64,000 bases of DNA from Desulfobulbus oligotrophicus. GTDB lineage: Bacteria; Desulfobacterota; Desulfobulbia; Desulfobulbales; Desulfobulbaceae. The notes under the pieces are model-generated. The model worked only from the letters and a program-made list of their open reading frames with translations. It was not told the origin of the DNA and ran no database searches. The position numbers were made by a program, and so were the translations under genes. The stretch covers positions 663,501-727,500 of the forward strand of contig NZ_CP054140.1 of assembly GCF_016446285.1 (NCBI RefSeq). The letters run 5' to 3'. Positions 37,301 through 57,007 of this stretch are shown here, piece after piece (the stretch's first letter is position 1; each line of letters opens with the position of its first letter).

Positions 37301-37578
37301 GCCTGTCCCTGGCGCTGGGGTTGTCTCATATGGCCAGCAAGAATGTCCGGGTGGATTCGCTGTTTCTGGATGAAGGCTTCGGCACCCTTGACGAGGAAGC
37401 CCTCGACACCGCCCTAGAAACCCTCGCGGGCCTGCAGCAGGACGGCAAACTGATCGGTGTCATTTCGCACGTGCCCGCCTTGAAGGAGCGGATCAGCACG
37501 CAGATCCAGGTAACTCCTCAAACCGGTGGCAGAAGCCAGATATCCGGGCCTGGATGCGGCAGCGTCGTCCCAGTTTAG
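34324..37578 (+). CDS. sbcC: SbcC / Rad50-like SMC ATPase subunit
   Basis: A 1084-residue protein. Walker A is GPTGAGKTTILDAICLALYG (about 37-44). Long coiled coils follow, interrupted near residue 540 by the zinc-hook PCPLCGATEHPF (CPLC). The C-terminal lobe has the ABC signature NLSGGESFIVSLSLALGL (about 982) and Walker B/D-loop SLFLDEGFGTLDEEALD (about 1015). It tethers and remodels DNA ends with SbcD. Length and arrangement are normal for SbcC. Strong heptad content and a low-complexity Glu/Lys-rich region are expected for the family. It is the last gene in the overlapping run that starts at 23257. Confidence 0.92.
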   Translation: MRILQVRFKNLNSLVGEWQIDLMHPAFASDGIFAITGPTGAGKTTILDAICLALYGRTPRLNKVTKSGNEIMSRQTGECFAEVTFETQTGRYRCHWSQHRARKKPDGELQAPKHEIANADSGEIFESKIRGVADQIESATGMDFDRFTRSMLLAQGGFAAFLQAAPDDRAPILEQITGTEIYSQISIRVHERQREEREKLNLLQAETAGIVILEPEQEQEIGQALEAKQKDETDLAARAAETGKAIAWLTTIDGLKKEIVNLADEASKLQGDIEEFKPDREKLGRALSAASLDGAYATLTATRKQQADDSAGLKAEEEALPGIESSAKEQAEALKSAEQQTARAKEELKAAAPTLQKVRSLDQKLADQKKAVSEEDEGFKKATAKIDADKKARLEEQDKRSKAHETLDLVDGYLKEHAQDEWLISGLAGVEEQIGGLLSKQNEIVQKDAAQEAANTTLELATKSLDDCQKQSGIRKQELEDALKQLQQGKDALSQLLGDRLLREYRTEKETLLREMAFLTKIAELEDHRAKLEDGKPCPLCGATEHPFAEGNVPVPDETEKKIDALTRLISKAEDQEVAIKKLEEAESLARKNLTEAEKLESAAANDKKAAEKAHAEVKDGLVKLRADFAVRRQAVANKLQPLGIADISETDISSLIETLTARLKGWQAQVKKKADIEKQIADIDSEVKRLDAVIETQSTALAEKLERLETLKKELATGSDERSALYGDKNPDDEERRLNKAISDAEGAEKQARDRHNELQQKWNTAKVHVESLNKRIDQREPELRRLETEFSAALAPVGFSNEEQFLAAILPSESRAELTATAKDLDERQTDLKARQKDRETRLATEVARKLTDKSLEELEPQFKEQEETLKELRDIIAGLKHKLSENAAAKERIKEKQTAIEAQKKECRRWENLHELIGSADGKKYRNFAQGLTFEMMIGHANRQLQKMTDRYLLARDDAQPLELNVVDNYQAGEIRSTKNLSGGESFIVSLSLALGLSHMASKNVRVDSLFLDEGFGTLDEEALDTALETLAGLQQDGKLIGVISHVPALKERISTQIQVTPQTGGRSQISGPGCGSVVPV

Positions 37579-38975: not shown

Positions 38976-40783
38976 ACCCAAACTCCCGGAGCCTTTATAC
39001 CTCTGCATTGACCCCACCGCCGGGGATGATTTTCGACGAGGCCATTGCAACCACCTTTTCGATGGACCCAGCCCTACTGCTTGAGGCACCTGTCTACCTG
39101 GCGTTAATGGCGGCGGATGGTCATACCGATCCTGACCCGTTGTCTGTGCTTGAAGCCATCCGCAGGTACTCGAAACGAATCACCGTCTATGTGCAACGAG
39201 GACGGATTCAAGTGCCCCAGATTGCCAAGCCCAATCCATTGTTTGGGTTTCTGGAGGAAATGGTCGTCGAGGTAACGGCCCCTGGCGGAGGCGTCTTCCA
39301 TCCAAAAGTCTGGGCAATCCGTTTTGTCAGCCCCGATCAAAGCAGCTCGATGTATCGTCTGGTTGTCCTGACGAGAAATATGACCACCGATCAGTCCTGG
39401 GACCTGTCACTTCAGCTCGAAGGGACGATTGCAGGCCGGAAGTCCAAATCAAATAAACCTCTGGCTCATTTCTTCAAGACGCTTCCTGATCTGGCCACCG
39501 GAACAACAGAGCCTGGCAGGAGCGAACAAGCTCTCAGATTCGCGGACGAGTTGCATCGAGTCCAGTGGGAACTCCCCGACGGCTTTGACGAGCTGACCTT
39601 CTATCTTCCGGGAACGAAAGCGTATGACTGGGAGCCTCCCATGGCGAATCGGATGGCCGTCATTTCGCCGTTCTGTTCTGATGAGGCCCTGCGAGCATTG
39701 ACGAGAAAAACCAAGGCCGCAGATGCTCTCATCTCACGTCCGGAGTCATTATCAGCCCTGAAGAAGGAGACTCTCGAGCTCTTCACGCAATGTCTTCATC
39801 TGGACGACGCGGCGGAAACCGAGGATGGCGAGGAAGACGACGCCATCGAACAGCCGCTTGCGACCGGCCTCCATGCAAAGGTCTATCTGTTTGAGACCAG
39901 GTACTATTCAGACTATACCCATGTGATCATGGGGTCTGCGAATGCAACCAACGCGGCGCTGAATGCTTCGAAAAATGTCGAGATTCTGGTCGGGCTAGTT
40001 GGCCGGAAGAGTAAAGTCGGCGGCATCGACGAGCTTCTTGGCGCTGACGGATTAGGTGAATATCTTGTCGACTTTGACACGAGCAAGGAAGCAGAGATTG
40101 ATGCGCTCCGGCAGGCGGCTGAGGAATCCGTTGAGAGGGCTCGCTCCCGGATAGCTGAAACAGCCCTGTCCATCGAATGCAGTCCGGGATCGAAGGACGG
40201 TCTGTGGGCATTGGTGTTGACGGGAGAAATCCCATCCCTTGATGGGATCGTCAGTGCTATTGCATGGCCGATAACCGTTACTCGGGACTTCGCGGTGGAT
40301 ATTCTTAACGGCGATGCTAACGGTGGGATCGGCCTCGGAGAGTTCTCCGCCTCTTCTGTAACGGGGCTCATCGCGTTTGAGCTTAAGACCAACCATCCGG
40401 ACGTTTCGGCCCGGTTTGTTCTGAATATTCCCGTTACCGGCGTTCCAGAAGAACGCAACTCTGCCATCCTGCAAACCGTGATCAGCAATCAGGAGGGATT
40501 CCTGCGTTATCTCCTACTGTTGTTGGGGGATGATAAGGTATCCGGACTTGATCCAGGTAGTGGCACCGGGTTTGCCAAATGGTTGGCCCGGTTGGCCGAC
40601 GGTGAAGATATCCCGCTACTGGAAGAGCTGACCCGCACGTACAGCCGACACCCGGAGCGACTATCGGAAATCTCGGGGCTGGTTCGTGATCTGTCCCAGG
40701 GAAGCCAGAATGCGATTATCCCCGAGGATTTTTTGAACCTCTGGACAGTTTTTGAATCGGCTATCGGAGGGCGTGATGCATAG
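38969..40783 (+). CDS. Phospholipase D-family nuclease
   Basis: A 604-residue protein with two HKD-type signatures: GVFHPKVWAIRF (about 108-119) and GLHAKVYLFE...HVIMGSANATNAAL (about 299-330). The second is complete with H-x-K and GSxN; the first is looser. PLD-family proteins act as nucleases in several defence systems such as Mokosh and BREX-type islands, where a helicase partner feeds DNA. ATG 38969 is chosen because GAGGAG precedes it and it overlaps the DUF6361 stop. It overlaps the next gene by eight bases, so the three proteins are probably a complex. The C-terminal half (about 390-604) has no recognised domain. Confidence 0.75.
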   Translation: MLNPNSRSLYTSALTPPPGMIFDEAIATTFSMDPALLLEAPVYLALMAADGHTDPDPLSVLEAIRRYSKRITVYVQRGRIQVPQIAKPNPLFGFLEEMVVEVTAPGGGVFHPKVWAIRFVSPDQSSSMYRLVVLTRNMTTDQSWDLSLQLEGTIAGRKSKSNKPLAHFFKTLPDLATGTTEPGRSEQALRFADELHRVQWELPDGFDELTFYLPGTKAYDWEPPMANRMAVISPFCSDEALRALTRKTKAADALISRPESLSALKKETLELFTQCLHLDDAAETEDGEEDDAIEQPLATGLHAKVYLFETRYYSDYTHVIMGSANATNAALNASKNVEILVGLVGRKSKVGGIDELLGADGLGEYLVDFDTSKEAEIDALRQAAEESVERARSRIAETALSIECSPGSKDGLWALVLTGEIPSLDGIVSAIAWPITVTRDFAVDILNGDANGGIGLGEFSASSVTGLIAFELKTNHPDVSARFVLNIPVTGVPEERNSAILQTVISNQEGFLRYLLLLLGDDKVSGLDPGSGTGFAKWLARLADGEDIPLLEELTRTYSRHPERLSEISGLVRDLSQGSQNAIIPEDFLNLWTVFESAIGGRDA

Positions 40784-43700
40784 CAACCGCTTTTTATCAG
40801 CCCCCGCCTTGGCCGGTCTGAAAGATTTCCAGAGGAAGACCGTGGAGTACGTCTTCAAGCGGCTCTATGGCAATGAGCCAACTTCCCGTTTTCTGATCGC
40901 CGATGAAGTTGGACTCGGGAAAACGCTAGTCGCCCGGGGAATCATTGCCAAGACCTTGGAGCACCTTCAAGACGAGGTGGATCGGGTCGATGTGATCTAC
41001 ATCTGCTCCAATGCCGCCATCGCGACCCAAAATGTCAATCGGCTCAATGTCAGCGACACGGATGGTTTTTCTATCGCTACGCGACTGACGTACCTGCCCA
41101 GGCAAGTACGCTCGCTGCGAAAGAACAAGGTAAATTTCATCAGCCTGACGCCCGGTACAGCCTTCGATCATGCCCGCAGTCGAGGCGGGCATGCCGACGA
41201 ACGGGCGATTCTCTATCGGATGCTGTACGACTTGCCCCTGGCGCAAAATGAACGGCGTAGACGGCTGCGCGTAGGCCTCCTCAACATTCTTCAGGCGACA
41301 GCAGGTAAGGATAACTGGCGAGCCAAGGCCAAAAACCTTCCAGCAGAGGATCTGGATACAGACCTTTCCAAGGCCTTTCGCCGGGCAGTTCTTGAGGATG
41401 CTGAGTTGTATGCGGCCTTGAAGGAAGGCTGTGAACGCTTTGCCCGATACCGGGACTACAGCAGAATTCCTTGGGAAGACTCCGAGCTTCGTTACGACCT
41501 GATCGGAAAGCTCAGAAGCAAGCTGGCTTCGGTGTGCCTTTCCGCGCTTGAGCCCGACTTGGTCATCCTTGATGAATTTCAACGATTCAAGCACCTGCTG
41601 GACGGCGATGACGAAGCCTCCATGCTGGCGACCGCGCTCTTTGAACATCCCGACGTTCGCGTTCTCCTGCTGTCCGCAACGCCCTACAAAATGTTCACCC
41701 TCGACCAGGAGAATGACGAGGACGACCACTATCCAGATTTCATCAGGACACTGAACTTCCTCTTCAATGATTCCGGCAAGGTCGACGAGGTCAAAAGTCT
41801 TTTGTCAGAGCATCGAACAACGCTCCACGCCTGCGCGAAGGGCTCCGTATGTCATCCGGGGAAAAAGGCCGAACTTGAACGAGCGCTCCTGAACGTCATG
41901 TGCCGAACGGAGCGGGTCGCGACGACTCGTGATCACAATTCAATGCTGACCGAGATCGAGCGGACGGCTCCCCTCACGCCAGCGGATCTTCAGCACGCCG
42001 CGACCGTTGACGCAGTGGCAATCTGCGTTAAAGCCGGGGAACCAATTGAATACTGGAAGTCTGCGCCTTACTTGATCAACTTTTTGAAACATTATGAGCT
42101 GAGGCATAAGCTGGATGCCCAGTTAAATGCCCCTTCAGATGCTCTTCGCGGAACTCTTTCATCGGCAAATGGGCAGTTGCTGACGAAGGACAAACTGGAG
42201 GGCTATCAGGCTCTCGATCCTGCCAACCCAAGGATGCGCGTGCTCTTCGAAGACACTATTGATAAGGGCATGTGGCAGCTTTTATGGATGCCGCCGTCCA
42301 TGCCGTATATCAAGCCTGGTGACGCATACCGGGACAAGGATGGTTTGACCAAAGCCCTTGTGTTTTCCTCTTGGAGCGCCGTTCCGGACGCGGTTGCGTC
42401 AATTTGCTCCTACGAAGCCGAACGAATGATGATCGCCGGAACCTCGGTTTCCCACAGCGAACTCTATGACAAGATCAAGCCATTGCTGCGGTTTGCGGTA
42501 GCCTCAAACGATAACCGCCTTACTGGTATGCCAGTTATTGCCTGGTTGCTGCCGTCCCCAACCCTTGCCACCAAGATTGATCCGCTCGAGATTGCACTTC
42601 GCCATGGATGCGGGCCAGTGGACGCCCAGGAACTGAGGAACGAGGTTAAGGCTACCTGCCGTAGTTTGGTCGAAACCCTGCCTCGTGCCGGGGAAGGGAC
42701 GCGAGCTGACGAGCGATGGTATTGGGCGGCTCCCATTTTACTCGATTCTCATAACGGGTTGCTGGACTGGTGTAAGAGCCATTCGGGATGGAGATCCGCT
42801 ACACCGGACCATGAATCTGGCACTCGCTTCAAAGATCACATCGACCTGCTGGTCAGCATGGCGGAGGGTAACATTCCTCTCGGCCCTCAGCCGGATGATC
42901 TAGTCGATGTGCTTTGCGATCTGGCTCTTGCCGGTCCTGGCGTGTGTGCCTTGCGAGCTCTTCGCCGTATCAGTGCCGAACTTGACGTGTCCGACCCGAA
43001 CCTCCTGTCAGCCGCAGCCAGGATCGCATCCGGCTTCCGATCTCTTTTCAATATGCCGGAAACGATTGCCATGCTGCGAGGCTCCGGCGAGGACACTTAT
43101 TGGCGGTTAACGCTTCAGTACGGTATCGACGGCAATCTCCAATCGGTGCTCGACGAATATGTGCATGTCCTTCGAGAGTCTTTGGGTCTTCAAGAGCACT
43201 CACCGGAAGAACAGGTGGCTGGCATAGCCGAGTGTATCCAATCGGTGTTGTCACTGCGGACCGCGCAGATTCGAATCGATGAAATAAAGATGTCGGGCGA
43301 CGGCTTTGCTCTTGATGATTTCAACACCCGCTGTCGTTTCGCGCTCCGGTTCGGGGATATTCGAGACGACAACAACCAGGCTCTCGTTCGTGCCGACTCG
43401 GTGCGGGATGCCTTCAACTCACCGTTTCGTCCCTTCGTTCTGGCGTCGACCTCAATTGGTCAGGAAGGGTTGGACTTCCACACTTGGTGCCATGCGGTAG
43501 TCCACTGGAACCTGCCTTCCAATCCCGTTGATCTTGAACAGCGCGAAGGCCGGGTTCATCGCTACAAAGGCCATGCGGTCAGAAAGAATATCGCGGAACG
43601 ATATGGTCTGACTGCTCTCTCCGAGGCGTTTGAGGAAGGTGATCCGTGGCAGACCCTTTTCCATATCGCGGCCCAGCGAAAGTCCAATGGGCACTCCGAT

Positions 43701-44015
43701 CTCATCCCATATTGGATCTTCGAGGATGGTTCCGCCCGGGTGGAGCGCCGCATCCCTCTACTCCCGTACAGCAAGGAGGTTGGGAAGCTCAAACGACTGA
43801 AGCAAGGCTTGGCCCTTTATCGGATGGTTTTTGGTCAACCCCGCCAGGAGGACCTGCTGTTCAGCCTTAGCCAGAACGGTAACCATGAGTCAGCGGATTT
43901 AGCCGACTGGCTGATTTCGCTTCAACCCCCGGAAACTGTTTTGAAGGATGAATCGGCCGAGGAAAACACCCTGATCCTGCCTCCGGCAAAGTCCGCTCAG
44001 GGCATTAGCAATTGA
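40776..44015 (+). CDS. SNF2-like DEAD/DEAH-type helicase
   Basis: A 1079-residue protein. Residues about 15-330 hold the first RecA lobe: LKDFQRKTVEYVF, FLIADEVGLGKTLVARG (Walker A, about 43), LVILDEFQRF (about 263) and LLLSATPYKMF. The C-terminal lobe (about 885-940) has SIGQEGLDFHTWCHAVVHWN and DLEQREGRVHRYKGHAV (motif VI with Arg finger). The 550-residue stretch between has no recognised domain and may be a nuclease-regulating insert. This enzyme would be the ATP motor for the PLD nuclease and DUF6361. The start at 40776 overlaps the PLD stop by eight bases. The stop lies 13 bases before the HNH gene. Confidence 0.8.
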   Translation: MHSNRFLSAPALAGLKDFQRKTVEYVFKRLYGNEPTSRFLIADEVGLGKTLVARGIIAKTLEHLQDEVDRVDVIYICSNAAIATQNVNRLNVSDTDGFSIATRLTYLPRQVRSLRKNKVNFISLTPGTAFDHARSRGGHADERAILYRMLYDLPLAQNERRRRLRVGLLNILQATAGKDNWRAKAKNLPAEDLDTDLSKAFRRAVLEDAELYAALKEGCERFARYRDYSRIPWEDSELRYDLIGKLRSKLASVCLSALEPDLVILDEFQRFKHLLDGDDEASMLATALFEHPDVRVLLLSATPYKMFTLDQENDEDDHYPDFIRTLNFLFNDSGKVDEVKSLLSEHRTTLHACAKGSVCHPGKKAELERALLNVMCRTERVATTRDHNSMLTEIERTAPLTPADLQHAATVDAVAICVKAGEPIEYWKSAPYLINFLKHYELRHKLDAQLNAPSDALRGTLSSANGQLLTKDKLEGYQALDPANPRMRVLFEDTIDKGMWQLLWMPPSMPYIKPGDAYRDKDGLTKALVFSSWSAVPDAVASICSYEAERMMIAGTSVSHSELYDKIKPLLRFAVASNDNRLTGMPVIAWLLPSPTLATKIDPLEIALRHGCGPVDAQELRNEVKATCRSLVETLPRAGEGTRADERWYWAAPILLDSHNGLLDWCKSHSGWRSATPDHESGTRFKDHIDLLVSMAEGNIPLGPQPDDLVDVLCDLALAGPGVCALRALRRISAELDVSDPNLLSAAARIASGFRSLFNMPETIAMLRGSGEDTYWRLTLQYGIDGNLQSVLDEYVHVLRESLGLQEHSPEEQVAGIAECIQSVLSLRTAQIRIDEIKMSGDGFALDDFNTRCRFALRFGDIRDDNNQALVRADSVRDAFNSPFRPFVLASTSIGQEGLDFHTWCHAVVHWNLPSNPVDLEQREGRVHRYKGHAVRKNIAERYGLTALSEAFEEGDPWQTLFHIAAQRKSNGHSDLIPYWIFEDGSARVERRIPLLPYSKEVGKLKRLKQGLALYRMVFGQPRQEDLLFSLSQNGNHESADLADWLISLQPPETVLKDESAEENTLILPPAKSAQGISN

Positions 44016-47203: not shown

Positions 47204-47401
47204 ATGGATAAAATCGACAAATGGCTGACCATTGATGAGTTGGCAAGCTACATCAAAATGAGCCGAACCAAGCTCTACGGTATGGCCCAGCGCGGCGAGG
47301 TTCCCGCCTCCAAGATCGGCAACCAATGGCGTTTCGACCGGGAGGAGATCGATCGGTGGATGAAGGCGCACGCGACCGGCAAAGGGGAACCCAAGGCATG
47401 A
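47204..47401 (+). CDS. Excisionase-type helix-turn-helix protein, putative regulator of the second defence operon
   Basis: A 65-residue protein. WLTIDELASYIKMSRTKLYG is the HTH unit and GNQWRFDREEIDRWMK the wing/C-terminal part, as in HTH_17. It is similar in layout to the protein at 23257 (W-L-S/T-V/I-D-E, then Y-R/G, then W-K/R-F, then E-V/I-D-x-W), though clearly diverged. The ATG at 47204 follows GCGGTGAGG. The stop overlaps the next start (ATGA), tying it to the methyltransferase gene. Each of the two defence operons begins with such a protein. Confidence 0.8.
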   Translation: MDKIDKWLTIDELASYIKMSRTKLYGMAQRGEVPASKIGNQWRFDREEIDRWMKAHATGKGEPKA

Positions 47402-50151
47402 ACGCCGGAATCGACACTAAGGAATCTTCCATGAACACCAAAGATATCATCGATCATATCTTCAGGGACCCGGCCACCAAATACGAGCTGACCGAGTTCG
47501 AAAACCTCGGCAAGGCGATTCACGACATCCTGGCGATCTACCCAAAAACGGCCGCCACGGGTCGGGATGCGGGCAAAACCAAGTACTACCTGAAAAGCTT
47601 CATTCCCTTTTCCTCGGGCAACGAGGAGGTACAGGTCTACGTCGAGAACGGCAAGGCCAACCCCGAAGAGATCGTGCGCCAGCTGTGGGTCTACAAGCTG
47701 ATCCACCAGTACGGCTACAAGATGGACGAGATCGACCTGGAGGCCGGCGTGCAGTTCGGCACTGAGGTCGGCACCAAGGCAGCGGACATCATCGTCTACA
47801 CCGACAACACCAAGGAAACGCCGAAGATCATCGTTGAGTGCAAAAAGCCCAAGCGCAAAGACGGCATCGAGCAGCTCAAGAGTTACATGAACGCCAAGGG
47901 CGCGCCGGTGGCGGTCTGGTCCAACGGCAGTGACAGCATCATTCTTTACCGGCCCTATCCAAAAGAATTCGACGACACCCTGTTCGATATCCCCAAGCGC
48001 GGGCAGGAGCCGAAGGACGTTCTGGAAACCAAGAAGACCCTGCTGCAGCTCAAGAAGGACTTCAACTTCAAAAAGATCATTCAGGACCTGGAAGAACTGG
48101 TGCTGGCCGACAGCGGCAAGGACGAATTCAACGAGATCTTCAAGCTGATCTTCGCCAAGATCTGGGATGAAAAAGAGGCGCTCGAAAACCGCAGGGACAG
48201 GACCGTCGAGTTCGGCAAGGCCCTTGACCCTGATATCACCTTCGACCGCATCAACGGCCTGTTCAAAAAGGCCTGCGAGGAGTGGCCCGGCATCTTTAAG
48301 GAGAATGAAGATATCGAACTGGCCAAGCGCCACCTGCAGGTCTGCGTCGGCCCCATCGAGGGTGTGCGGTTGCTGGGCTCCAACCTGCGCATCATGGACG
48401 ACGCCTTTGAATACCTGCTGCCCACCGAATCCAAGAAGAAGAAAGGCCAATTCTTCACCCCTCGTCATGTGGTGGAGATGTGCGTGCGCATGCTCAACCC
48501 GACACGGAAGGAGTACGTCATGGACCCGGCCTGCGGTTCCGGGGGCTTTTTGCTGCACGCCATGGAGTGGTGCTATCCGGTCGGGGACAATGACCAACGC
48601 GAACTCCGCAAGCACAAGTACGCTGCCAAGTATCTCTGGGGCATCGATTTCGAGGCCCGCGCCGCCAAGACCTCCCGCGCCCTGATGCTGATCGCCGGCG
48701 ACGGCCACACCAATATCTTCGGCCCGGATGTGAACAGCCTTGACCCCAAAACCTGGTATGAAAGCGGCTCCGGCCAGGCCCTGATGCTTGGCCTGCGCCA
48801 GGCCAAGCTGACCGCCAAGAAGATTCCGGAGCAGGAAAACCTCAGGGATGAAGACAAGGCCTGGGAATACTTCAACGAGTTAAAGTTCGACGTCATCCTC
48901 GCCAATCCGCCCTTTGCCGGAGAAATAAAGGACCGCAAGATGCTGGTTCACTACGATCTGGCCAAACCGGCCCTGAAACGGGCCGGCAGTAACAAATCCC
49001 CCAAGGAAGAGCGCGACGTGCTCTTTATCGAGCGTATCTTGAAGATGCTGCGCCCCGGCGGCCGGGCCGCCATCGTTTTGCCCCAGGGTAAGTTCAACAA
49101 CTCGTCGCTGGCCTTTATCCGTGAGTGGATCTTGAAAAAAGCGCGGCTGCTGGCAGTGGTCGGGCTGCACCCCAACACCTTCAAACCTCATACCGGCACC
49201 AAGACCTCGGTGCTCTTTGTGCAGAAATACACCAGGCAGCAACTCGCCGATATCGCCCGCGTTCATGACGAGGTGGCCAAGGATTGCCCGGCTTTTGATG
49301 CCGAGATTCAGGCCCTGCTCGATGAGAACGAGGGCGATGTGGCGGAGGACGCCATCCCCGAAGCGGTGGCCGACCTGCTCGCCGAGACCTTCAACGAACC
49401 AGAGGCGGAAGAGCCTGCTGAGAATGGCGACGGTGAAAAGAGCGACGAAGAGGCCGCTGAGCTGCCCTCTGATGAAGAACGCATCGCCCAGGCCGAAGAG
49501 AAGGTAGACAACCTGCGGGGCGAGCTGCTGCGGGTGAAGCAGAAGCTCGCCGACCTCGACAGCGACGTGGAAGCACTGGCGCAGCAGCAGGAGCAGGACC
49601 TGGACGCCCTGGCCAGCGCCTGGACAGGCAACAAGGGGGACCTGCGCTTTCAGGTTAAGGAAATGAGGGCCACCTACAAGGTTGATACCCAGACCCTCAA
49701 GCAGAGCCAGAAGGAAAAATCTAAACGCTACAAGGCTGAGATCAAGCGGCTGGAAAAGGAGATCCCGATTGCCGAGCGCGACCTGAAACTGCTCACCAAT
49801 CGCGGCAAGCTGGAGTTGATTCTGGCTGACACCGACCTGATCGACACCTTGAAGGAGCGCTGGATCGCCGCCGAGGTGGCCAAACGGCTCGACTACCCGA
49901 TCTTTATGGCGGTGAGTGAGCGCGGCGGCAAGAACAACTCCGGTGATTACGAGTATGTGCTCGATGCGGACGGCCACCTGATGGAAGAGGCCAGCGGCCA
50001 GCCCAAGATCGACCAGGATCTGGTCAACTACGACCTGACCGCAGCCGACCTTTTCAATGCTGCCACCATCCCCGATGACCAACTCTGCGTAGCCGAGGCC
50101 TTTGTGCGCTTTGCGCAAGCTGAGGGGTTTGATTTCTGGGGGGCGGGGTGA
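47398..50151 (+). CDS. Type I-like N6-adenine methyltransferase with N-terminal PD-(D/E)xK domain
   Basis: A 917-residue protein. Residues about 55-175 resemble the nuclease N-terminus of HsdR-type proteins: AGVQFGTEVGTKAADIIVY, then KIIVECKKP (D...ExK about 130-148). Residues about 345-620 form the N6 methylase: KGQFFTPRHVVEMC, MDPACGSGGFLLHA (SAM, about 376), DVILANPPFAGE (catalytic NPPF, about 503), and GKFNNSSLAFIREWIL. A charged low-complexity stretch and coiled coil (about 660-810) precede the C-terminus. HsdM normally lacks the nuclease part. The start at 47398 overlaps the HTH stop; an internal ATG at 47431 is possible. Confidence 0.85.
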   Translation: MNAGIDTKESSMNTKDIIDHIFRDPATKYELTEFENLGKAIHDILAIYPKTAATGRDAGKTKYYLKSFIPFSSGNEEVQVYVENGKANPEEIVRQLWVYKLIHQYGYKMDEIDLEAGVQFGTEVGTKAADIIVYTDNTKETPKIIVECKKPKRKDGIEQLKSYMNAKGAPVAVWSNGSDSIILYRPYPKEFDDTLFDIPKRGQEPKDVLETKKTLLQLKKDFNFKKIIQDLEELVLADSGKDEFNEIFKLIFAKIWDEKEALENRRDRTVEFGKALDPDITFDRINGLFKKACEEWPGIFKENEDIELAKRHLQVCVGPIEGVRLLGSNLRIMDDAFEYLLPTESKKKKGQFFTPRHVVEMCVRMLNPTRKEYVMDPACGSGGFLLHAMEWCYPVGDNDQRELRKHKYAAKYLWGIDFEARAAKTSRALMLIAGDGHTNIFGPDVNSLDPKTWYESGSGQALMLGLRQAKLTAKKIPEQENLRDEDKAWEYFNELKFDVILANPPFAGEIKDRKMLVHYDLAKPALKRAGSNKSPKEERDVLFIERILKMLRPGGRAAIVLPQGKFNNSSLAFIREWILKKARLLAVVGLHPNTFKPHTGTKTSVLFVQKYTRQQLADIARVHDEVAKDCPAFDAEIQALLDENEGDVAEDAIPEAVADLLAETFNEPEAEEPAENGDGEKSDEEAAELPSDEERIAQAEEKVDNLRGELLRVKQKLADLDSDVEALAQQQEQDLDALASAWTGNKGDLRFQVKEMRATYKVDTQTLKQSQKEKSKRYKAEIKRLEKEIPIAERDLKLLTNRGKLELILADTDLIDTLKERWIAAEVAKRLDYPIFMAVSERGGKNNSGDYEYVLDADGHLMEEASGQPKIDQDLVNYDLTAADLFNAATIPDDQLCVAEAFVRFAQAEGFDFWGAG

Positions 50152-51506
50152 TGGCTGCAATCAATCATGTAATGCTCAGTGATGCAGTTTCCAATAACAG
50201 ATTCTCAGCCGAATTTTTTGATCCACAATATGTGTTTAAACCAAACAATTCCGTGTGTTGGGCACCAATCGGACGAATCCTGAAAAAATGTGAATACGGC
50301 ATTTCCATTTCGATGAATACTGAAAGCAAGGGTTTCCCTATTTTCAGAATGAACGAATTGAACAACTGCTTTGCCTTACGACCAGAAAAATTCGCAGCTA
50401 TCTCACGGCAAGTATTTGAGCAGTACCGATTAAACGAAAACGATGTGCTGTTTAACCGCACGAACTCTTTTGACTTTGTTGGACGTACCGGAATAGTAAA
50501 AGACCAGACCGACTGCACATTTGCATCATATTTGATCCGTCTGGTTCCAGACAGAAACGTAATATTGCCCGAATATTTGGCTGTTTATCTGAACACTCAG
50601 TTTGGAATAGGCCAGATTAAACGCCGCGCAATGCGTTCGATTAACCAGGCAAATGTGAGCGGATCTGAGGTTAAAAGAATCCTGATCCCCCTCGTTGCTC
50701 CCGAAACTCAAGAGCATATTGCCGAGCTTGTTAATGCCTCGTATCAGGTAAGCAAAGAAAGTGAAGCTTACTACACCCAAGCCCAGCAACTCCTCGAATC
50801 TGAGCTGGGGCTGGACAGGCTGCGTTTTGACAAACCCGTGGGCTACACGGCGCGGTTTAGTGTTATCGGGCTGTCTGACAGCGTCAGCGCCAATCGTATT
50901 GATGCCCAGTGTTTCTCGCCTGAAGCCGTGTTCTATGAAGACTGGTTGCTGAAACATGCGAACTGCGATCGACTGAATCTCTTGCTTGCCAGCACTGCGA
51001 AAGGTCGGCAACAAGCCGAAGCCGAAACGGGCACAGCAGACTATTGCAGCATCAAACACATCACTAGCTGCGAAATTGTCGGCGCATCCAAAGCATCACC
51101 TTCTGCCGGAACACCAAACGCCAGAAAGGATGATCTACTGTTGGCCATTACCGGCGCGACCATCGGCAAAATCGGCATCGTCAATCGCTACGACAACCTC
51201 GTTTTTTCGGGCGACATGTTGCGTCTCCGGGCCAATGGTGCGGTCAATCCCCACTATCTCCTGCTGACTCTGGATCATCACTTGGGCCAGGTGCAATTTA
51301 ATCGCTGGATCACCGGATCAACCAACGGCCATCTTGCCCAACGCGATGTCAGCCGGGTTCTGGTGCCGCGCCTTGCTCCTGAAAAAGAAAAACAAATTGC
51401 CGTGCTGGTGGCGGAGTCGCTTGAAAAGCGGCAGGAGTCGGAACAACTCCTTGACCAGGCCAAATCCCGCGTCGAACAACTCATCGAAGAGGCGGTGCGG
51501 GCATGA
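50151..51506 (+). CDS. hsdS: Type I restriction specificity (S) subunit
   Basis: A 451-residue protein with two target-recognition modules. The first (residues 1-215) has LFNRTNSFDFVGRTGIVKDQ and GSEVKRILIPLVAPETQEHI; the second (about 235-440) has LLLAITGATIGKIGIVNRYD and VSRVLVPRLAPEKEKQIAVL. Each module ends in the conserved helical spacer. The S subunit sets the DNA site for the methyltransferase. Bases 50150-50700 are clearly more AT-rich than the rest of the operon, suggesting that the first recognition domain was exchanged. The start overlaps the M gene by one base. Confidence 0.9.
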   Translation: MAAINHVMLSDAVSNNRFSAEFFDPQYVFKPNNSVCWAPIGRILKKCEYGISISMNTESKGFPIFRMNELNNCFALRPEKFAAISRQVFEQYRLNENDVLFNRTNSFDFVGRTGIVKDQTDCTFASYLIRLVPDRNVILPEYLAVYLNTQFGIGQIKRRAMRSINQANVSGSEVKRILIPLVAPETQEHIAELVNASYQVSKESEAYYTQAQQLLESELGLDRLRFDKPVGYTARFSVIGLSDSVSANRIDAQCFSPEAVFYEDWLLKHANCDRLNLLLASTAKGRQQAEAETGTADYCSIKHITSCEIVGASKASPSAGTPNARKDDLLLAITGATIGKIGIVNRYDNLVFSGDMLRLRANGAVNPHYLLLTLDHHLGQVQFNRWITGSTNGHLAQRDVSRVLVPRLAPEKEKQIAVLVAESLEKRQESEQLLDQAKSRVEQLIEEAVRA

Positions 51507-52597
51507 GCGACAAACCCGACAAACTACCTACCGACTACGTCGGGTTGTTGGCCGATATCAAGCAGCGGGTGCGTCATGCCCAGACCCGCGCCGTGCTGGC
51601 GGTCAATGCCGAGTTGATCCGCCTCTACTGGGAAATCGGCGCCCTGATCGACCGCCGCCAAAAACAACAGGGCTGGGGCGCCGGGGTGATCCCGCGCCTT
51701 GCCCGCGATCTGCACAACGAGTTGCCGGAGGAAAAGGGATTTTCCGAACGTAACATCAAGCGGATGCTGACTTTTTACCGCGAATATCCTCACCTGAAAT
51801 TTGTGCCACAGGCTGTGGCACAAATCGAATCCGAGCCAAAAGGGCCACAGGCTACGGCACTTTTTCCGGCCGACCTGATCCAGTCCGTGCCCTGGGGCCA
51901 CCACGCCGAGCTGATCACCAAGGTCAAGGATCCGACCACCCGCCACTGGTATATGCAGGCAAGCCTTGCCAATGGCTGGAGCCGCACTATTTTGGTCATG
52001 CAAATTGAAACCGCCGCCCATCAGCGACAGGGACGGGCCACCACCAACTTTGCCAAACGCCTGCCGCCACCCGATTCCGATCTGGTGCAGCAAACCCTGA
52101 AAGATCCCTACCTGTTTGACTTTCTCACCCTGGAAACGAGTTTTCACGAACGCGAGCTGGAAACCGACCTCATCGCCCATCTGGAAAAATTCCTGCTGGA
52201 ACTGGGCCAGGGGTTTGCCTTTGTCGGGCGGCAATACCACCTTGATATCGGCGAGCAGGATTTCTACATCGACCTGCTCTTCTACCACCTCAAACTGCGC
52301 TGCTATGTGGTGATCGATCTCAAACGCGGCAATTTCAAACCGGAATATGCCGGCAAGATGAACTTCTATTGCAGCGTTGTCGATGACCGACTGAGTCATG
52401 CAACCGACAAGCCGACCATCGGCCTGATCCTCTGCCAGCAGCCCAACCGTGTGCTGGCGGAATACGCCTTGCGTGGAGTTGATAAACCCATTGGGGTATC
52501 CAGCTTTGAATTGACCCGCGCCTTACCGAAGAGCCTGGAAAGCAGCCTGCCGACCATCGAAGAGATCGAACGTGAATTGGAAGGGGATAAACCATGA
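51503..52597 (+). CDS. DUF1016 / YhcG-family PD-(D/E)xK nuclease
   Basis: A 364-residue protein. The N-terminal winged part (RLYWEIGALIDRRQKQQGWG, RLARDLHNELPEEKGFSERN) and the C-terminal nuclease (YHLDIGEQDFYIDLLFYHLK, CYVVIDLKRGNFKPEYAGKM) are typical of DUF1016. The D...DxK set is present. YhcG-like proteins commonly travel with type I methyltransferase/specificity pairs and may provide a second nuclease. The ATG at 51503 overlaps the S gene stop. The next small gene also overlaps by four bases. Confidence 0.88.
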   Translation: MSDKPDKLPTDYVGLLADIKQRVRHAQTRAVLAVNAELIRLYWEIGALIDRRQKQQGWGAGVIPRLARDLHNELPEEKGFSERNIKRMLTFYREYPHLKFVPQAVAQIESEPKGPQATALFPADLIQSVPWGHHAELITKVKDPTTRHWYMQASLANGWSRTILVMQIETAAHQRQGRATTNFAKRLPPPDSDLVQQTLKDPYLFDFLTLETSFHERELETDLIAHLEKFLLELGQGFAFVGRQYHLDIGEQDFYIDLLFYHLKLRCYVVIDLKRGNFKPEYAGKMNFYCSVVDDRLSHATDKPTIGLILCQQPNRVLAEYALRGVDKPIGVSSFELTRALPKSLESSLPTIEEIERELEGDKP

Positions 52598-52779
52598 ATC
52601 TGACCAGTGAGGACAAACGGCTGCTGGAGGATCTGTGCCGACAACACGGTGTGAGCGCCGACAAGGTGCTGAAGCTACTCGACACAGTGCGTGATTACGA
52701 ATTCAAGGAGCGCCGCACCGGGGTCTATGACGCCCTGCGCGAGATCCTGAAATCGACACCGGGAGGCGCGACATCATGA
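52594..52779 (+). CDS. Small protein of a DNA-modification operon
   Basis: A 61-residue protein (MNLTSEDKRLLEDLCRQHGV, then LLDTVRDYEFKERRTGVYDA). The size and the LLDTVRDYEF segment are like the small proteins found between modification and Dnd-type genes. ATGA overlaps with both neighbours show it is translated in the operon. It has no obvious catalytic site, so a structural or regulatory role is likely. Confidence 0.6.
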   Translation: MNLTSEDKRLLEDLCRQHGVSADKVLKLLDTVRDYEFKERRTGVYDALREILKSTPGGATS

Positions 52780-53414
52780 GCCACGGTGGAGAGGTCGAGC
52801 GTTATATGAAGGACCCGGGCCTGCTGGTGGAGTTGTGCCGGAAGGTGATCGAGCGGCTGGACACCGGGAGCGAAAACGGCGAGACCGCCGCCATGGAGGC
52901 GCAGTTGCGGGAAATAGCCCGCACCATTGACAAGCTCGACAAGCAGGGGGTGCCGGTGCCGGACGCACTTCGGGCTGAGAAGACCCGTCTAGCCGCTGCC
53001 CTGGGCGTGAGTGCCGAAGCCACCCAGATGCTTAACCATCTGGCCGATGAACTGGAAGAACTGCTGAAAGAGCTCAAGGATCGTATCGGCCGCACTCCTG
53101 AAGCTGCGCCCACCAAAAAGCCTCGTACCAAACGGTCGAAATCTCCAAAGACCGACAAAGCGATTCTGCGTATATTGATCATTGAAGCGCTCCGCCATCT
53201 CGGCGGCTCCGCGCCCAAGAATGATGTCTTGAAGTACATGGAGGAAAAACTCCTTGGCAAGCTCCTGCCCGGTGATCTGGAATGGCGGGAGGCAACAAAT
53301 GACCATGCCTGGCAGAACAACGCCTGTTGGGAGCGAAATGCCATGAAGAACGATGGGATTTTGAAAGCGGATTCCACTCGCGGCATCTGGGAACTGAGTG
53401 AGGGCCACCGATGA
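52776..53414 (+). CDS. Winged-helix (Mrr N-terminal-like) protein
   Basis: A 212-residue protein. Residues 1-100 are helical, with a coiled-coil-like AEATQMLNHLADELEELLKE. A basic linker (KKPRTKRSKSPKTDKAI) leads to the C-terminal domain: RILIIEALRHLGGSAPKNDV, WQNNACWERNAMKNDGILK and GIWELSEGH. The W-x-N-x-x-x-W...Gxx...G-x-W-x-L pattern matches the wing of the Mrr N-terminal-type winged helix. It lies before the SMC gene and overlaps the 61-residue gene. It could recruit the Dnd-like ATPases to DNA. Confidence in the DNA-binding assignment is moderate. Confidence 0.6.
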   Translation: MSHGGEVERYMKDPGLLVELCRKVIERLDTGSENGETAAMEAQLREIARTIDKLDKQGVPVPDALRAEKTRLAAALGVSAEATQMLNHLADELEELLKELKDRIGRTPEAAPTKKPRTKRSKSPKTDKAILRILIIEALRHLGGSAPKNDVLKYMEEKLLGKLLPGDLEWREATNDHAWQNNACWERNAMKNDGILKADSTRGIWELSEGHR

Positions 53415-53488
53415 CAAATTTGCAGAACAGAAAATTTGCATGCACGCAGTGCGCCCGTCAGGCTGACATACAGGGAGGTATGTCATGA
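53411..53488 (+). CDS. Possible 25-residue coupling peptide
   Basis: A 25-codon frame starts in the ATGA shared with the winged-helix gene and ends in the ATGA shared with the SMC gene. The peptide contains CTQC. It lacks its own RBS, so it may simply be a reading bridge that keeps translation coupled. Two direct AAATTTGCA copies (53416-53424 and 53432-53440) lie in it. Confidence 0.3.
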   Translation: MTNLQNRKFACTQCARQADIQGGMS

Positions 53489-55476
53489 AATTCATCAAAC
53501 TGACCATCGAGAACTACAAGTCGTTCCAGTTCGCCACCGAGATTGCCTTTCCCATGGCGGCGGACGGCCGCAGCATCTTTTTGATCGGCGGCATGAACGG
53601 TGCGGGCAAGACCTCGATCATGGAGGCGATCAACTATTGCCTCTATGGGGCCAAGGCGGACGAGATCTACCGCAACATCAACCGCCGCGAGAAGGCCAAG
53701 GGCAACGCCAATGTGGTGTTCGAACTGGTCATGGAGATGGACGACGGTGCAGAGCTGATCGTCAAACGCTCCTGGAGCGCGGGTGCGGTGGCGGAACCCA
53801 AGCCCCGCGACCTGAGCGAGCGGCTGGTGGTGGTGCGCGACGGCAAGCGGGTTTCAGTGCAGAATCAGGAGATCTGGCAGGATTTCATCCGCGCCGCCAT
53901 TCCGCCCGGTATCACCCAGTTCTTCTTTTTCAACGGCGAGAAGATTCAGGAGATCGCTGCCGATGATCATTCCGAGGTGCGCCTGAAATCCTCGCTGGAG
54001 GCGGTGCTGGGCATCCAGAACATTAACCGCCTGGCCTCGGACCTGGCCTACATCAAGCAGGAAGAGCGCAAGGGCTTTGTGGAGATCTCCGACGAGGACC
54101 TGGAGTTCAAGCAGAGCGAGCTGAAAAAGGAGAAAAGCAAACTCGGTCGCAAGCAGCAGGAGCGCACCGGCTTGCAGGAGGAACTGGCCGGGTTCCGCGA
54201 GCAACTCGCCGACGCCAAGAAGCGCTTTGAGGCAACCTTTCATGCCGAGCCGGAAAGCCGCGAGACCATGCGCGAGCAGGAAAAGCGGCGCATTCAGGCA
54301 TCCAACCGCCTGACCCAGGTGGAGAACGAAATCCGCAATCTGTGCGAAAAGGCGCTGCCCTTTGCCCTGGCGGGCAAACTGTTTGATGGCATCCGCCGGC
54401 AGATCGACCAGGAGCGCGACTCGGCCACCGGCGCAGCCATCAAGGAGCACGCCGCCGAGTTGGCCAAACGGCTGGTGCGAGTAGTCGAGGAGCCGGAGCC
54501 GATCTACCGGGAAAAGCTCTCCGCCGAAAGGATGGCCGAACTGGAGCGGCGCATCGTCCGCCTGCTCAAGGAAGGTGACGGTCGCGGCGATGCGGCCAAA
54601 GTGCTTGATCTCTCCGACCGGGACGCGGCACGGGTGCTGAACCAGATGGAGAATCTGGAACGAAGCGAGGTGTTCCTGATTCAGCCGCTACTGGAGGAAA
54701 AGCGCGAGCTGGAGACTCTGGTGCGGGCACTGACCGGCCTCTCCGGCCTCGGTGGCATGACCGAGTCGGAACGGGAGCTGTTCGACCAGCTGCAGGCCGA
54801 GATGGAAAGCTGCTCGACTCAGATCGGCCGCAAGACCGAGCAGCTTCGCCTACTGGAAGAGGAAATTCTTTCGTTGGAAAAACGCATCGGCGAAATCGAG
54901 ATGGAGATCGAAAAGCTCTACGAGAAACACAACGTCTCCAGGGAGAAGGCGGAGTTCATCGAGGAGTGCGACGCCGTCGCCGGCGTGCTCAACCAGTTCA
55001 TGGTGCGCCTGCGCAAGAACAAGGTGTACCTGCTGCAGGAAAAGACCTTCGAGATGTACCGCCTGCTCTCCAGCCGCAGCGGCTTGATCAAAGACCTGAC
55101 CATCGACGACAAGACTTACGAGGTGCGTATCAGTGACCGCAACGGGCACGAGATCAAAAAGTCGGGCCTATCGGCGGGGGAAAAGGAGGTGTTTGCGGTG
55201 TCGCTGCTGTGGGGGCTGGCTCAGACCAGCCGGCTCAATCTCCCGATCATCATCGATACCCCGCTCTCGCGTCTGGACAGCACGCACCGGGATAACATCG
55301 TCAACAACTACTTTCCCAACGCCGGGGAGCAGGTGGTGATTCTCTCCACCGATACCGAGATCGATACGAACTACTACCGGAGCCTGAAGCCGCACCTGAG
55401 CGGTGCCGGTTGCCTTGCCTTTGACCAGCGGCAAGAGCTGACCACCTTCAAAATCGGCTATTTCTGGGAGAACTGA
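53485..55476 (+). CDS. DndD-like SMC-family ATPase
   Basis: A 663-residue protein. The N-terminus (LTIENYKSFQFATEI, then FLIGGMNGAGKTSIMEAINY) carries Walker A at about residues 36-43, with the DndD-like CLYGAKADEIYRNINR. Two coiled-coil arms surround a central GLSGLGGMTESERELFDQ region without a CxxC hook. The C-terminus has KSGLSAGEKEVFAVSLLWGL (ABC signature) and LPIIIDTPLSRLDSTHR (Walker B and D-loop). DndD belongs to the DNA phosphorothioation set, but DndA, DndB and DndC are not seen here. GGGAGGTATGTC precedes the ATG. The neighbour downstream is a DndE-HerA protein. Confidence 0.8.
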   Translation: MKFIKLTIENYKSFQFATEIAFPMAADGRSIFLIGGMNGAGKTSIMEAINYCLYGAKADEIYRNINRREKAKGNANVVFELVMEMDDGAELIVKRSWSAGAVAEPKPRDLSERLVVVRDGKRVSVQNQEIWQDFIRAAIPPGITQFFFFNGEKIQEIAADDHSEVRLKSSLEAVLGIQNINRLASDLAYIKQEERKGFVEISDEDLEFKQSELKKEKSKLGRKQQERTGLQEELAGFREQLADAKKRFEATFHAEPESRETMREQEKRRIQASNRLTQVENEIRNLCEKALPFALAGKLFDGIRRQIDQERDSATGAAIKEHAAELAKRLVRVVEEPEPIYREKLSAERMAELERRIVRLLKEGDGRGDAAKVLDLSDRDAARVLNQMENLERSEVFLIQPLLEEKRELETLVRALTGLSGLGGMTESERELFDQLQAEMESCSTQIGRKTEQLRLLEEEILSLEKRIGEIEMEIEKLYEKHNVSREKAEFIEECDAVAGVLNQFMVRLRKNKVYLLQEKTFEMYRLLSSRSGLIKDLTIDDKTYEVRISDRNGHEIKKSGLSAGEKEVFAVSLLWGLAQTSRLNLPIIIDTPLSRLDSTHRDNIVNNYFPNAGEQVVILSTDTEIDTNYYRSLKPHLSGAGCLAFDQRQELTTFKIGYFWEN

Positions 55477-55480
55477 ACCT

Positions 55481-57007
55481 ATGGCGGATCGTCTGTACAC
55501 ATCGAGTGAGGCGGATGAAATCCTGAGCGCTCTGCGCTTTGAAACCAAGCTGGAGAAGGCAACCCTGGCACGGATGGCCTTTGCGCTCTCTCTTTCCAAG
55601 GTCGGTGCCGAGGTGCCGGGCAGCCCCAACTTCAGCGGCGGGGAGATGAAACGGCCAACATTCTTCGCTGAGGACGAGACCTTTATCCGTACCTTGCTTT
55701 CCTTCGCCTACAAGAGGCCGGATATCAGCGAAGACGAGCTGTTTTCGAACCGGTCGCTGACAAAGAATCACATCGACCATGGCGCAATGCTGCTGAATGA
55801 GTTGTTCCAGACCTGTGGTCGCAGCGGTAACGGGCTGATCGCCCGGTTGGTGGAAGAGGTGGAGTTCTCCGGCCGTCGCGAGAATTTTGGTCTAGAATTG
55901 GATATCTTCATCGGCCGTACGTTACTCAAACGCAACGAACTGGTGATGGCGTTGAACAACACCGCCAGGCATGCCAACTCTCACCTGGCCATCATGGGCA
56001 AGCCCGGCGTCGGCAAGACGCAGTTCCTGTTGAAGCTGCTCGCGGATATCCGGATTCAATCAAACTACCAGACCAATTTTGTTTACTTCGATTACAAGGG
56101 CGATGTAGTTGATAACGAACGGTTTCTGGAAATCGCCAAGGTTCAGCCGTACCGGCTTTTGCAGGCAGGGCAGAGCCTGCCGATCAACCCCTTTGTACTG
56201 CCCGCCTACGACGAGCAGACCATCAACGTTTCAGCCCGCGAAAAAGCGGAGAGCTTTGCCTCCATCAACAATAAACTTGGCGTGGTCCAAAAAGGGGCGC
56301 TGACCGAAGCGATCCGGGCCGGATATGCAAAACGTACCGGGTCTCCGACACCTTACCCGGATTTCCAGGACATTCTTGAAATTGCTGCGGCAGCATACGA
56401 GGAGGATGGCAAAAAGGACGACAGCCTGATCGAGGTCCTACGCGATCTGTCGGACTTTGATCTGTTCTGGAAGCACGGCAGCGACGCGCCGCCCATTGAA
56501 AAACTCTCCAATCGCACCCTGCTCATTGATGTACACGCCATGCCGGTTTTGAAGGAGCTGGTGGCCTACCTGGTCATTGAGCGAATGTATAAGGAGATGG
56601 CAAGCATGCCGGATAGCCCGGTGACCGACGGGCGACGAACCATCCGCACCATTCTGGTTATCGATGAGGCCCATAACTACCTCAACCAGAAGAATATCTT
56701 CTTGCAGCGTATTATTCGCGAGGGCCGCTCAAAGGGCGTGGTGGTGTTTTTCGCCAGCCAGTCGCCCAACGATTACCAGCAGGACTTCTTCAATTTCCAG
56801 GAACTGCTGGAGTTCGCCTATATCTTCCAATGCGAGGGCGTGGCTGCCGGTTCGGTCCAGAAGATTCTCGGCTGCACCAGCAAGACGGCCAAGGAGTTGC
56901 AGACGGAAATTGCCCGGTTGGAACCCTGGCAGGTGGTAAGTCGCAGTTCCGACAAGACCGAGGAGTTCGTTAAGTTCACGGCCGAAGCGTTTTACAAGAA
57001 CTATTAA
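55481..57007 (+). CDS. DndE-like domain fused to a HerA/FtsK-type ATPase
   Basis: A 508-residue protein. Residues 1-110 resemble DndE: YTSSEADEILSALRFETKLE, KATLARMAFALSLSKVGAE and FIRTLLSFAYKRPDIS. The ATPase follows: LAIMGKPGVGKTQFLLKLLAD (Walker A, about 168-178), then TILVIDEAHNYLNQKN (Walker B, about 389-400) and VFFASQSPNDYQQDF. DndE normally is a small stand-alone protein. Its fusion to a motor ATPase suggests direct coupling of DNA binding to translocation. It lies four bases after the SMC gene and ends the operon; sequence beyond 57010 is decayed. Confidence 0.8.
   Translation: MADRLYTSSEADEILSALRFETKLEKATLARMAFALSLSKVGAEVPGSPNFSGGEMKRPTFFAEDETFIRTLLSFAYKRPDISEDELFSNRSLTKNHIDHGAMLLNELFQTCGRSGNGLIARLVEEVEFSGRRENFGLELDIFIGRTLLKRNELVMALNNTARHANSHLAIMGKPGVGKTQFLLKLLADIRIQSNYQTNFVYFDYKGDVVDNERFLEIAKVQPYRLLQAGQSLPINPFVLPAYDEQTINVSAREKAESFASINNKLGVVQKGALTEAIRAGYAKRTGSPTPYPDFQDILEIAAAAYEEDGKKDDSLIEVLRDLSDFDLFWKHGSDAPPIEKLSNRTLLIDVHAMPVLKELVAYLVIERMYKEMASMPDSPVTDGRRTIRTILVIDEAHNYLNQKNIFLQRIIREGRSKGVVVFFASQSPNDYQQDFFNFQELLEFAYIFQCEGVAAGSVQKILGCTSKTAKELQTEIARLEPWQVVSRSSDKTEEFVKFTAEAFYKNY

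What the first reader, a model, noticed from the sequence alone, without database searches (positions are those of the whole stretch)
47204..57007. A type I-like methyltransferase/specificity pair with DndD and a DndE-HerA fusion but no HsdR
The operon has a modification unit (M, S), nucleases (N-terminal PD-(D/E)xK of M, DUF1016) and two ATPases of Dnd type, but no HsdR translocase and no DndA/B/C phosphorothioation genes. This suggests the motor of restriction is the SMC and HerA-type ATPases. It may be a poorly described hybrid of type I restriction and Dnd machinery.
Basis: partly seen in the sequence, partly recalled or inferred. Interest (0 to 1): 0.85.

Follow-up and report, generated by a model that had tools for sequence, protein, structure and literature searches.

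The report
Methyltransferase operon using Dnd motor proteins
A bacterial operon joins a DNA-methylating, nuclease-bearing enzyme pair to two motor proteins of the DNA-sulfur (Dnd) defence machinery and keeps only the small piece of the missing sulfur enzyme that should grip the motor; the same set recurs in distant bacteria, so it looks like a real defence system that I could not find described.

Summary
Of three DndC residues whose joint mutation breaks that binding, two align with residues kept in 21 of 21 full-length family members; the third does not. The genome has no other DndC match, no PAPS-reductase-family match and no DndB match. Its five HsdRs each lie beside their own M and S.

In 18 relatives with enough upstream sequence the tail gene is present in 18, M in 16, S in 17; DUF1016 in only 3. 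M, tail, DndD and DndE-HerA diverge together (rho 0.85-0.96); S much less so (0.40-0.42).

Best reading: an S-guided m6A restriction-modification machine whose M carries an intact HsdR-type nuclease site and whose motor is DndD plus DndE-HerA, docked through the freed DndC tail. Parts and co-inheritance are shown; methylation, restriction and docking are inferred. Nine paper searches found no description of it.

The parts
47204..47401 (+). Small HTH (excisionase/MAD1-like) protein, 65 aa; accessory, probable regulator
   Evidence: PF12728 1.1e-16; NF047737 67.5 bits, below its cut-off of 80; found in 6 of 18 loci
47398..50151 (+). M: HsdR-type PD-(D/E)xK nuclease domain (HSDR_N_2) + N6-adenine methyltransferase, with a coiled-coil insertion of about 195 residues; 917 aa
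   Evidence: Pfam; D130, E147xK149, Q159xxxY163, DPxCGS and NPPF kept in 14 of 14 M proteins; insertion absent from three relatives of 694-705 aa; predicted helical hairpin 692-741/746-797, pLDDT 74-88 in an otherwise poor model
50148..51506 (+). S: type I-like specificity subunit, the exchangeable part; 452 aa
   Evidence: PF01420 2.3e-12; 34% identity to S of L015 although DndE-HerA is 96% identical; median 30% against 76% over 78 pairs
51503..52597 (+). DUF1016/YhcG nuclease; cargo in the slot after S, not core
   Evidence: PF06250 3e-65, PF17761 1.1e-39; 3 of 18 loci; slot otherwise holds RhuM, DarT/macro, macro or a zeta-toxin-like kinase
52594..52779 (+).
   Evidence: TIGR03183 395-446 of 447, 3.4e-5; family profile hits 4 of 5 plasmid-collection DndCs near the C-terminus, E. 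coli residues 436-485; present in 18 of 18 testable loci
52776..53414 (+). 212-aa protein with Mrr_N-like wHTH and probable coiled coil; accessory
   Evidence: PF14338 6.3e-5, below cut-off; 11 of 18 loci
53485..55476 (+). DndD: SMC/Rad50-like ABC ATPase, 663 aa
   Evidence: TIGR03185 388 bits, cut-off 245.85; Walker A and Walker B kept in 18 of 18 orthologues aligned
55481..57007 (+). DndE fused to a HerA/DndH-C-type ATPase, 508 aa; last gene of the operon
   Evidence: PF08870 38.4 bits, cut-off 25; 7es4 DndH C-domain; Walker A G173xxGxGKT and D395-E396 invariant in 17 rows

Best explanation
The operon encodes one machine: an S-guided N6-adenine restriction-modification system whose ATP-driven arm is of Dnd type. 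Shown: the core M-S-DndC tail-DndD-DndE/HerA recurs in order in distant phyla; M, tail, DndD and DndE-HerA diverge together while S is exchanged; the nuclease, methyltransferase and ATPase motifs are intact. Inferred: (1) M-S methylates host sites chosen by S. (2) The 61-aa protein binds the DndD head as the same segment of DndC does in canonical Dnd and, perhaps with the coiled-coil insertion of M, ties M-S to DndD/DndE-HerA, so that base methylation stands where sulfur chemistry used to be. (3) On unmodified DNA, DndD loads DndE-HerA, which translocates the DNA while the HsdR-type nuclease domain of M cuts, in place of the SF2 motor of HsdR. (4) Genes in the slot after S (here DUF1016) are optional extra effectors.
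For: Recurrence: 18 testable loci with tail 18, M 16, S 17. Co-divergence of M, tail, DndD and DndE-HerA, rho 0.85-0.96, 0 of 1000 permutations each. Tail = the DndD-contacting segment of DndC: PMC12193691 section 2.3 and profile alignment with L458 on L28 and R471 on R41, both kept in 21 of 21 full-length members. Nuclease and methyltransferase residues kept in 14 of 14 M; Walker motifs kept. M insertion seen in the Dnd-linked M proteins and not in three relatives. Other DndE-HerA loci have a real DndC where M-S-tail stands here (L014, L026). S turns over while the rest does not.
Against: No biochemical or phage data. E462, the third DndC contact residue, is V in 19 of 21 members, and the second DndC-DndD contact (the last helix of DndC) is not part of the 61-aa protein. 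L039 and L044 have tail, DndD and DndE-HerA but no M, and L045 has tail, DndD and DndE-HerA with TPR/ankyrin genes upstream, so the tail is not bound strictly to M-S. M-S pairs without Dnd genes exist (L099, L100), so M-S may work alone. Other nuclease genes lie at the edges of some loci: Mrr-type before M in L037 and GmrSD-type 6 bases after DndE-HerA in L042, so M need not be the cutter. S is not fully independent of the rest (rho 0.40-0.42, 48-61 of 1000 permutations as high).
Confidence: 0.55

Rival explanations
1. The DndD/DndE-HerA unit serves modification: as in canonical Dnd, DndD and DndE scan DNA and hand it to the modifying enzyme, here M-S, giving ATP-dependent methylation. Restriction is then done by the nuclease domain of M or by cargo nucleases.
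For: In canonical Dnd, DndC, DndD and DndE form the modification complex, and DndC binds DndD (PMC4611135 passages; PMC12193691). PMC10853773 proposes that DndDE is a core that recruits different modifying enzymes, including cytosine methylases. The tail sits in the place of DndC.
Against: Type I-like M-S pairs without Dnd genes exist (L099, L100), so methylation should not need a motor; a HerA translocase suits restriction better. Both points are indirect.
Confidence: 0.25
2. Two modules in one operon: M-S is a self-sufficient restriction-modification enzyme, and tail-DndD-DndE/HerA is a separate Dnd-like defence or back-up unit that merely travels with it.
For: M-S without Dnd genes exists (L099, L100). 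Tail-DndD-DndE/HerA without M exists in L039, L044 and L045 (L044 keeps an S remnant, so it may be decay).
Against: M tracks DndD and DndE-HerA at rho 0.96 and 0.92; the Dnd-linked M proteins carry an insertion that the others lack; M is present in 16 of 18 loci.
Confidence: 0.15
3. An incomplete standard system: an HsdR or DndC elsewhere in the genome completes it, or the operon is a decayed remnant.
For: Five HsdR genes exist in the genome, and some relatives of the operon are broken (L018, L030, L043, L044, L046).
Against: Each HsdR lies beside its own M and S. No DndC or PAPS-reductase-family match elsewhere; the PF01507 control rang in 14 of 14 control genomes. All eight frames of the window operon are open, and the same HsdR-less, DndC-less set is open in L037, L042 and L048.
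Confidence: 0.05

Closest known systems
Dnd phosphorothioation systems with DndE-HerA fusions (HerA clade 3 of Rakesh, Aravind and Krishnan 2024, PMC10853773)
   Same: DndD next to a DndE-HerA fusion; the DndC segment that contacts DndD is kept.
   Different: No DndC catalytic part, no DndB; N6-adenine M and S stand in its place. That paper's main text mentions cytosine methylases with the sister CxC systems but gave no hits for HsdM, HsdS or DUF1016.
Type I restriction-modification (HsdRMS)
   Same: N6-adenine M with S, an HsdR-type nuclease domain, turnover of S, and passenger genes after S.
   Different: No HsdR; the nuclease domain sits on M; no SF2 motor, but DndD and DndE-HerA instead.
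MADS (methylation-associated defence system, mad1-mad8)
   Same: Weak relatives of MAD1, MAD2 and MAD5 (HTH, HSDR_N-containing M, S) and a HerA-type ATPase (PADLOC mad8 5.5e-21).
   Different: All three below the NCBIfam cut-offs; DndD and DndE-HerA match no NCBIfam MAD model; Dnd parts and DndC tail instead. The MADS gene set is otherwise recalled, not read.
DndFGH
   Same: The HerA part is closest to the DndH C-terminus.
   Different: Here it is fused to DndE and lacks the N-terminal domains of DndH; no DndF or DndG in the operon.
CxC-DndE systems / PbeABCD
   Same: ABC ATPase paired with a DndE and, in some, a methylase (PMC10853773 section 16).
   Different: The ATPase scores best as DndD (448 bits, PbeC 421); no HKD nuclease-helicase (PbeA) in the operon; M-S is of type I.

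Membership tests
Type I restriction-modification | HsdM and HsdS | tested here: met
   PF02384 4.9e-35, PF01420 2.3e-12
Type I restriction-modification | HsdR with SF2 translocase in the locus | tested here: not met
   None in the operon; the five in the genome lie in other M-S loci
Dnd phosphorothioation | DndD and DndE | tested here: met
   TIGR03185 388 bits over a cut-off of 245.85; PF08870 38.4 over 25. TIGR03184 (DndE) 37.1 is below its cut-off of 71.85
Dnd phosphorothioation | DndC sulfurtransferase | tested here: not met
   Only the 61-aa tail; no PF01507 match in the genome
Dnd phosphorothioation | Sulfur in the DNA backbone | not testable with these tools
   Needs mass spectrometry
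DndFGH | DndF, DndG and DndH with N-terminal DndH domains | tested here: not met
   Only the C-terminal HerA part of DndH is matched (positions about 1340-1713 of 1715); the genome search for a DndF-type family rang in no control and is inconclusive
MADS | MAD1, MAD2 and MAD5 above curated cut-offs | tested here: not met
   67.5/80, 272.7/720, 115.5/400 bits
MADS | The full eight-gene mad set | tested here: not met
   No NCBIfam MAD model matched by DUF1016, the 212-aa protein, DndD or DndE-HerA
CxC-DndE / PbeABCD | PbeA HKD nuclease-SF2 helicase | tested here: not met
   No such gene in the operon; the ATPase scores DndD 448, PbeC 421 bits
HerA/FtsK capture systems (as named in PMC10853773) | HerA/FtsK ATPase of DndH-related type next to other defence modules | tested here: met
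   placement in their clade 3 was not tested by a tree

The most novel reading that the evidence does not exclude
A separate class of restriction-modification enzyme: the nuclease is built into the methyltransferase, the motor is a HerA ring loaded by an SMC-like DndD clamp, and the halves are held together by a docking segment cut out of a lost sulfur-transfer enzyme; in effect one DNA-scanning chassis re-tooled from backbone sulfur to base methylation.
Probability: 0.4. Interest if true: 0.85.

Novelty: new variant of a known kind. Interest (0 to 1): 0.72.

Why it matters
What DndD and DndE do is hard to study because in Dnd their role is tangled with sulfur chemistry. Here close relatives of these ATPases sit with a methyltransferase whose product long-read sequencing can see, and the DndC segment thought to hold DndD is a separate gene that can be deleted by itself. 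That makes the proposal of PMC10853773, that DndD-DndE is a general DNA-scanning core which recruits different modifications, directly testable. If the restriction reading holds, it is also an R-M system driven by HerA instead of an SF2 motor.

Tried and rejected
Phosphorothioation in trans: rejected for this genome, no DndC or PAPS-reductase-family match beyond the tail. A stray HsdR completing the system: unnecessary. Membership of MADS: below cut-offs. DUF1016 as the core nuclease: 3 of 18 loci. The 61-aa gene as a chance ORF: rejected, 21 other loci encode it, one as a truncated fragment. TAL-effector matches of the 61-aa protein: sums over repeats, no stretch passing by itself; not followed. 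DndF-type genome search: no control rang, no conclusion. IMG/VR scan: 2 short HerA-core matches only. PHROGs: generic ATPase hits for DndE-HerA, none for the 61-aa and 212-aa proteins. Plasmid search with the 61-aa protein: no match. Phage-record search with DndD: 4 records, 23-73% of the query covered; one is annotated with DndC and DndD; not followed. E. coli DndC by DNA: no match; by protein: found. Fold of M: mean pLDDT 51, used only for the helical hairpin; no fold search was run on it. Fold of DndE-HerA: mean pLDDT 70.

Full report
What is there. The operon runs 47204-57007 on the + strand of an unnamed 3.10-Mb genome in one contig (99.99% complete; window at C1:663501-727500). It lies in a defence-rich stretch whose G+C falls from about 0.64 to 0.48-0.59 near 23 kb. 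An eighth gene lies between DUF1016 and the wHTH gene: 52594-52779, 61 aa, ATGA overlaps on both sides. It matches only the C-terminal part of DndC (TIGR03183 395-446 of 447, 3.4e-5; PRK06850 405-456 of 505, 2e-6). A DndC search of the whole genome returned this segment and nothing else. PF01507 (PAPS reductase) and DndB (TIGR03233) gave no match; PF01507 rang in 14 of 14 control genomes, DndB in 2.

The DndC segment is a known contact. In E. coli B7A DndC, residues 433-482 contact the DndD head in an AlphaFold3 model, and the triple change L458D/E462A/R471A broke binding in a pull-down (PMC12193691 section 2.3 read in full; section 2.4; other passages). A profile of the 61-aa family (21 sequences) was run on five DndCs of the plasmid collection plus 1000 shuffles: 4 of 5 were hit near the C-terminus (domain E 1.1e-7 to 9.5e-5), Hymenobacter only at 0.5; the best shuffles had domain E 1.7 and 2.3 (whole-sequence E 0.41 and 0.12). 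E. coli H240 DndC has L458, E462 and R471 at exactly those numbers. L458 aligns with L28 and R471 with R41, both kept in 21 of 21 full-length family members; E462 aligns with position 32, V in 19 and E in 2. On 15 DndCs from the class, 4 were hit at domain E 0.0024 or better and one at 0.056 (best of 2000 shuffles 0.27), one at 1.6, and 9 not at all; several of these are short DndCs without such a tail. The DndC of L014 gave only 4.2 bits. The second contact in that paper, the last helix of DndC, is not part of the 61-aa protein.

Conservation. DndE-HerA was found at E 1e-20 or better in 6 of 257 genomes of the class, own genome included, and at 1e-18 or better in 2 of 395 of the phylum sample, own included. 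One search tabulated 29 loci; L027 and L015 are one contig, as are L050 and L014. Of these 29, 27 carry DndE-HerA at 67% identity or more over the best segment; the other two are L045 (44%) and L050 (26%). Eighteen of the 27, the window included, hold at least 5.5 kb before a DndD whose start is present: tail 18, M 16 (not L039, L044), S 17 (a 78-aa remnant in L044, a part in L043), wHTH 11, HTH 6, DUF1016 3. Rows dropped: L018 (a broken DndE-HerA with no other operon gene found) and L049 (S, part of DndD, start of DndE-HerA, no M or tail) have the length but no whole DndD; with them the tail is in 18 of 20 and M in 16 of 20. The other seven are cut short; L035 and L040 among them still show the tail. 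By record title (phyla assigned by me) loci with M include Pseudomonadota, Desulfobacterota, Nitrospirota, Planctomycetota, Bacillota and Bacteroidota. Many are metagenome bins, where wrong binning is possible; the records not marked MAG are Paracoccus (L030), Bowmanella (L037), Psychroserpens (L042) and Desulfoferrobacter (L043). In L037, L042 and L048 nothing but S and the tail lies between M and DndD, and the four long frames are open. Broken relatives: M of L030 (one stop), M, DndD and DndE-HerA of L046, DndE-HerA of L044, an M-S deletion fusion in L043, DndE-HerA of G093 (six stops).

One unit with a swappable reader. Across 12 loci the pairwise distances of M, tail, DndD and DndE-HerA correlate at rho 0.85-0.96 (0 of 1000 permutations each); S correlates with them at 0.40-0.42 (48-61 of 1000). 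Window and L015 share 96% of DndE-HerA but 34% of S; over 78 pairs the medians are 76% and 30%. S is best conserved in its central spacer and at its C-terminus. In M, D130, E147xK149, Q159xxxY163, DPxCGS and NPPF are kept in 14 of 14 proteins; reading these as catalytic motifs rests on established knowledge of the families. Walker motifs of DndD are kept in 18 of 18 orthologues and of HerA in 17 of 17 rows. Against three M relatives at about 40% identity (L098-L100, 694-705 aa), the Dnd-linked M proteins carry an insertion of about 195 residues (four aligned; lengths 896-948 for 13), predicted as a helical hairpin in an otherwise poor model. L099 and L100 show M-S with no match to the window's DndD, DndE-HerA or tail among the ORFs of 18 kb; L098 is a 4-kb contig and cannot tell. 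Close M proteins (91%) occur in 3 of 249 class genomes, own included: the same three that give tail-only DndC matches and whole DndE-HerA at 93% or more. A fourth genome, G135, has an 89% DndE-HerA fragment at a contig start.

Cargo. Between S and the tail other loci hold RhuM (L025, L032, L044, part of one in L046), a zeta-toxin-like kinase (L028), DarT plus macro (L033) or macro (L043). The M-S pair of L099, without Dnd genes, is also followed by DarT and macro. DUF1016 is thus one of several passengers. Other nuclease genes sit at the edges of some loci: Mrr-type before M in L037, GmrSD-type just after DndE-HerA in L042.

Origin and mechanism. Distant DndE-HerA relatives (27-28% identity) L014 (Candidatus Electronema, same family as the window genome) and L026 (Methylorubrum extorquens AM1) have a DndC-type PAPS-reductase-family gene directly before DndD, in line with the statement in PMC10853773 that HerA fused to DndE, next to a DndD-related ATPase, occurs in a subset of PT systems (section 22). 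The simplest inference is that the sulfurtransferase was replaced by an HSDR_N-type M-S pair while the part of DndC that grips DndD stayed as a gene of its own. No tree was rooted, so the direction is inferred. I favour a restriction-modification machine in which DndD loads DndE-HerA as translocase and the nuclease domain of M cuts (0.55); the main rival is that DndD-DndE drives methylation (0.25).

Literature. Nine searches of the held library showed no paper describing M-S with a DndC tail and DndE-HerA. PMC10853773: outline, sections 12, 16 and 22 read, plus passages; no hits for HsdM, HsdS, DUF1016 or 'specificity subunit'; its supplements could not be opened. PMC12839542, PMC12707154 and PMC4611135: passages only. 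Many subscription papers and all bioRxiv preprints are outside the library, so novelty is provisional. MADS is described from model names and recall.

Noticed in passing
window 37746-44015: Genes matching PADLOC ZacA (9.7e-147) and ZacC (score 1222.8) flank a PLD-like gene at 38870-40783, probably a complete Zac-type system, followed by an HNH gene at 44029.
   Followed up: no
window 29590-33065: SIR2 and HerA genes side by side, resembling the SIR2-HerA defence pair.
   Followed up: no
window 33062-37578: An SbcD-SbcC-like pair inside the defence island; best models just below the curated cut-offs for E. coli-type SbcC and SbcD.
   Followed up: no
window 23447-29593: C5 methyltransferase, HATPase-domain protein, Mrr-helicase and Vsr in one run, where the G+C content drops.
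   Followed up: no
L019, L020, L021, L022, L023 (own genome): Five HsdR loci, each with its own HsdM and HsdS; two of them (L020, L021) also carry a DUF1016 gene.
   Followed up: partly
L045:7514-11341: Brocadiaceae locus with tail, DndD and DndE-HerA (44%) but TPR and ankyrin genes in place of M-S: perhaps a further partner of the same core.
   Followed up: partly
L099:7242-12521: M-S pair without Dnd genes, followed by DarT and macro genes, the same cargo as in the Dnd-linked locus L033.
   Followed up: partly
own genome G000: No PAPS-reductase-family (PF01507) match at all, although 14 of 14 control genomes rang.
   Followed up: no
L086 (NZ_OL790696.1): A 4.8-Mb E. coli record in the plasmid collection that is labelled a plasmid but has the size of a chromosome.
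   Followed up: no
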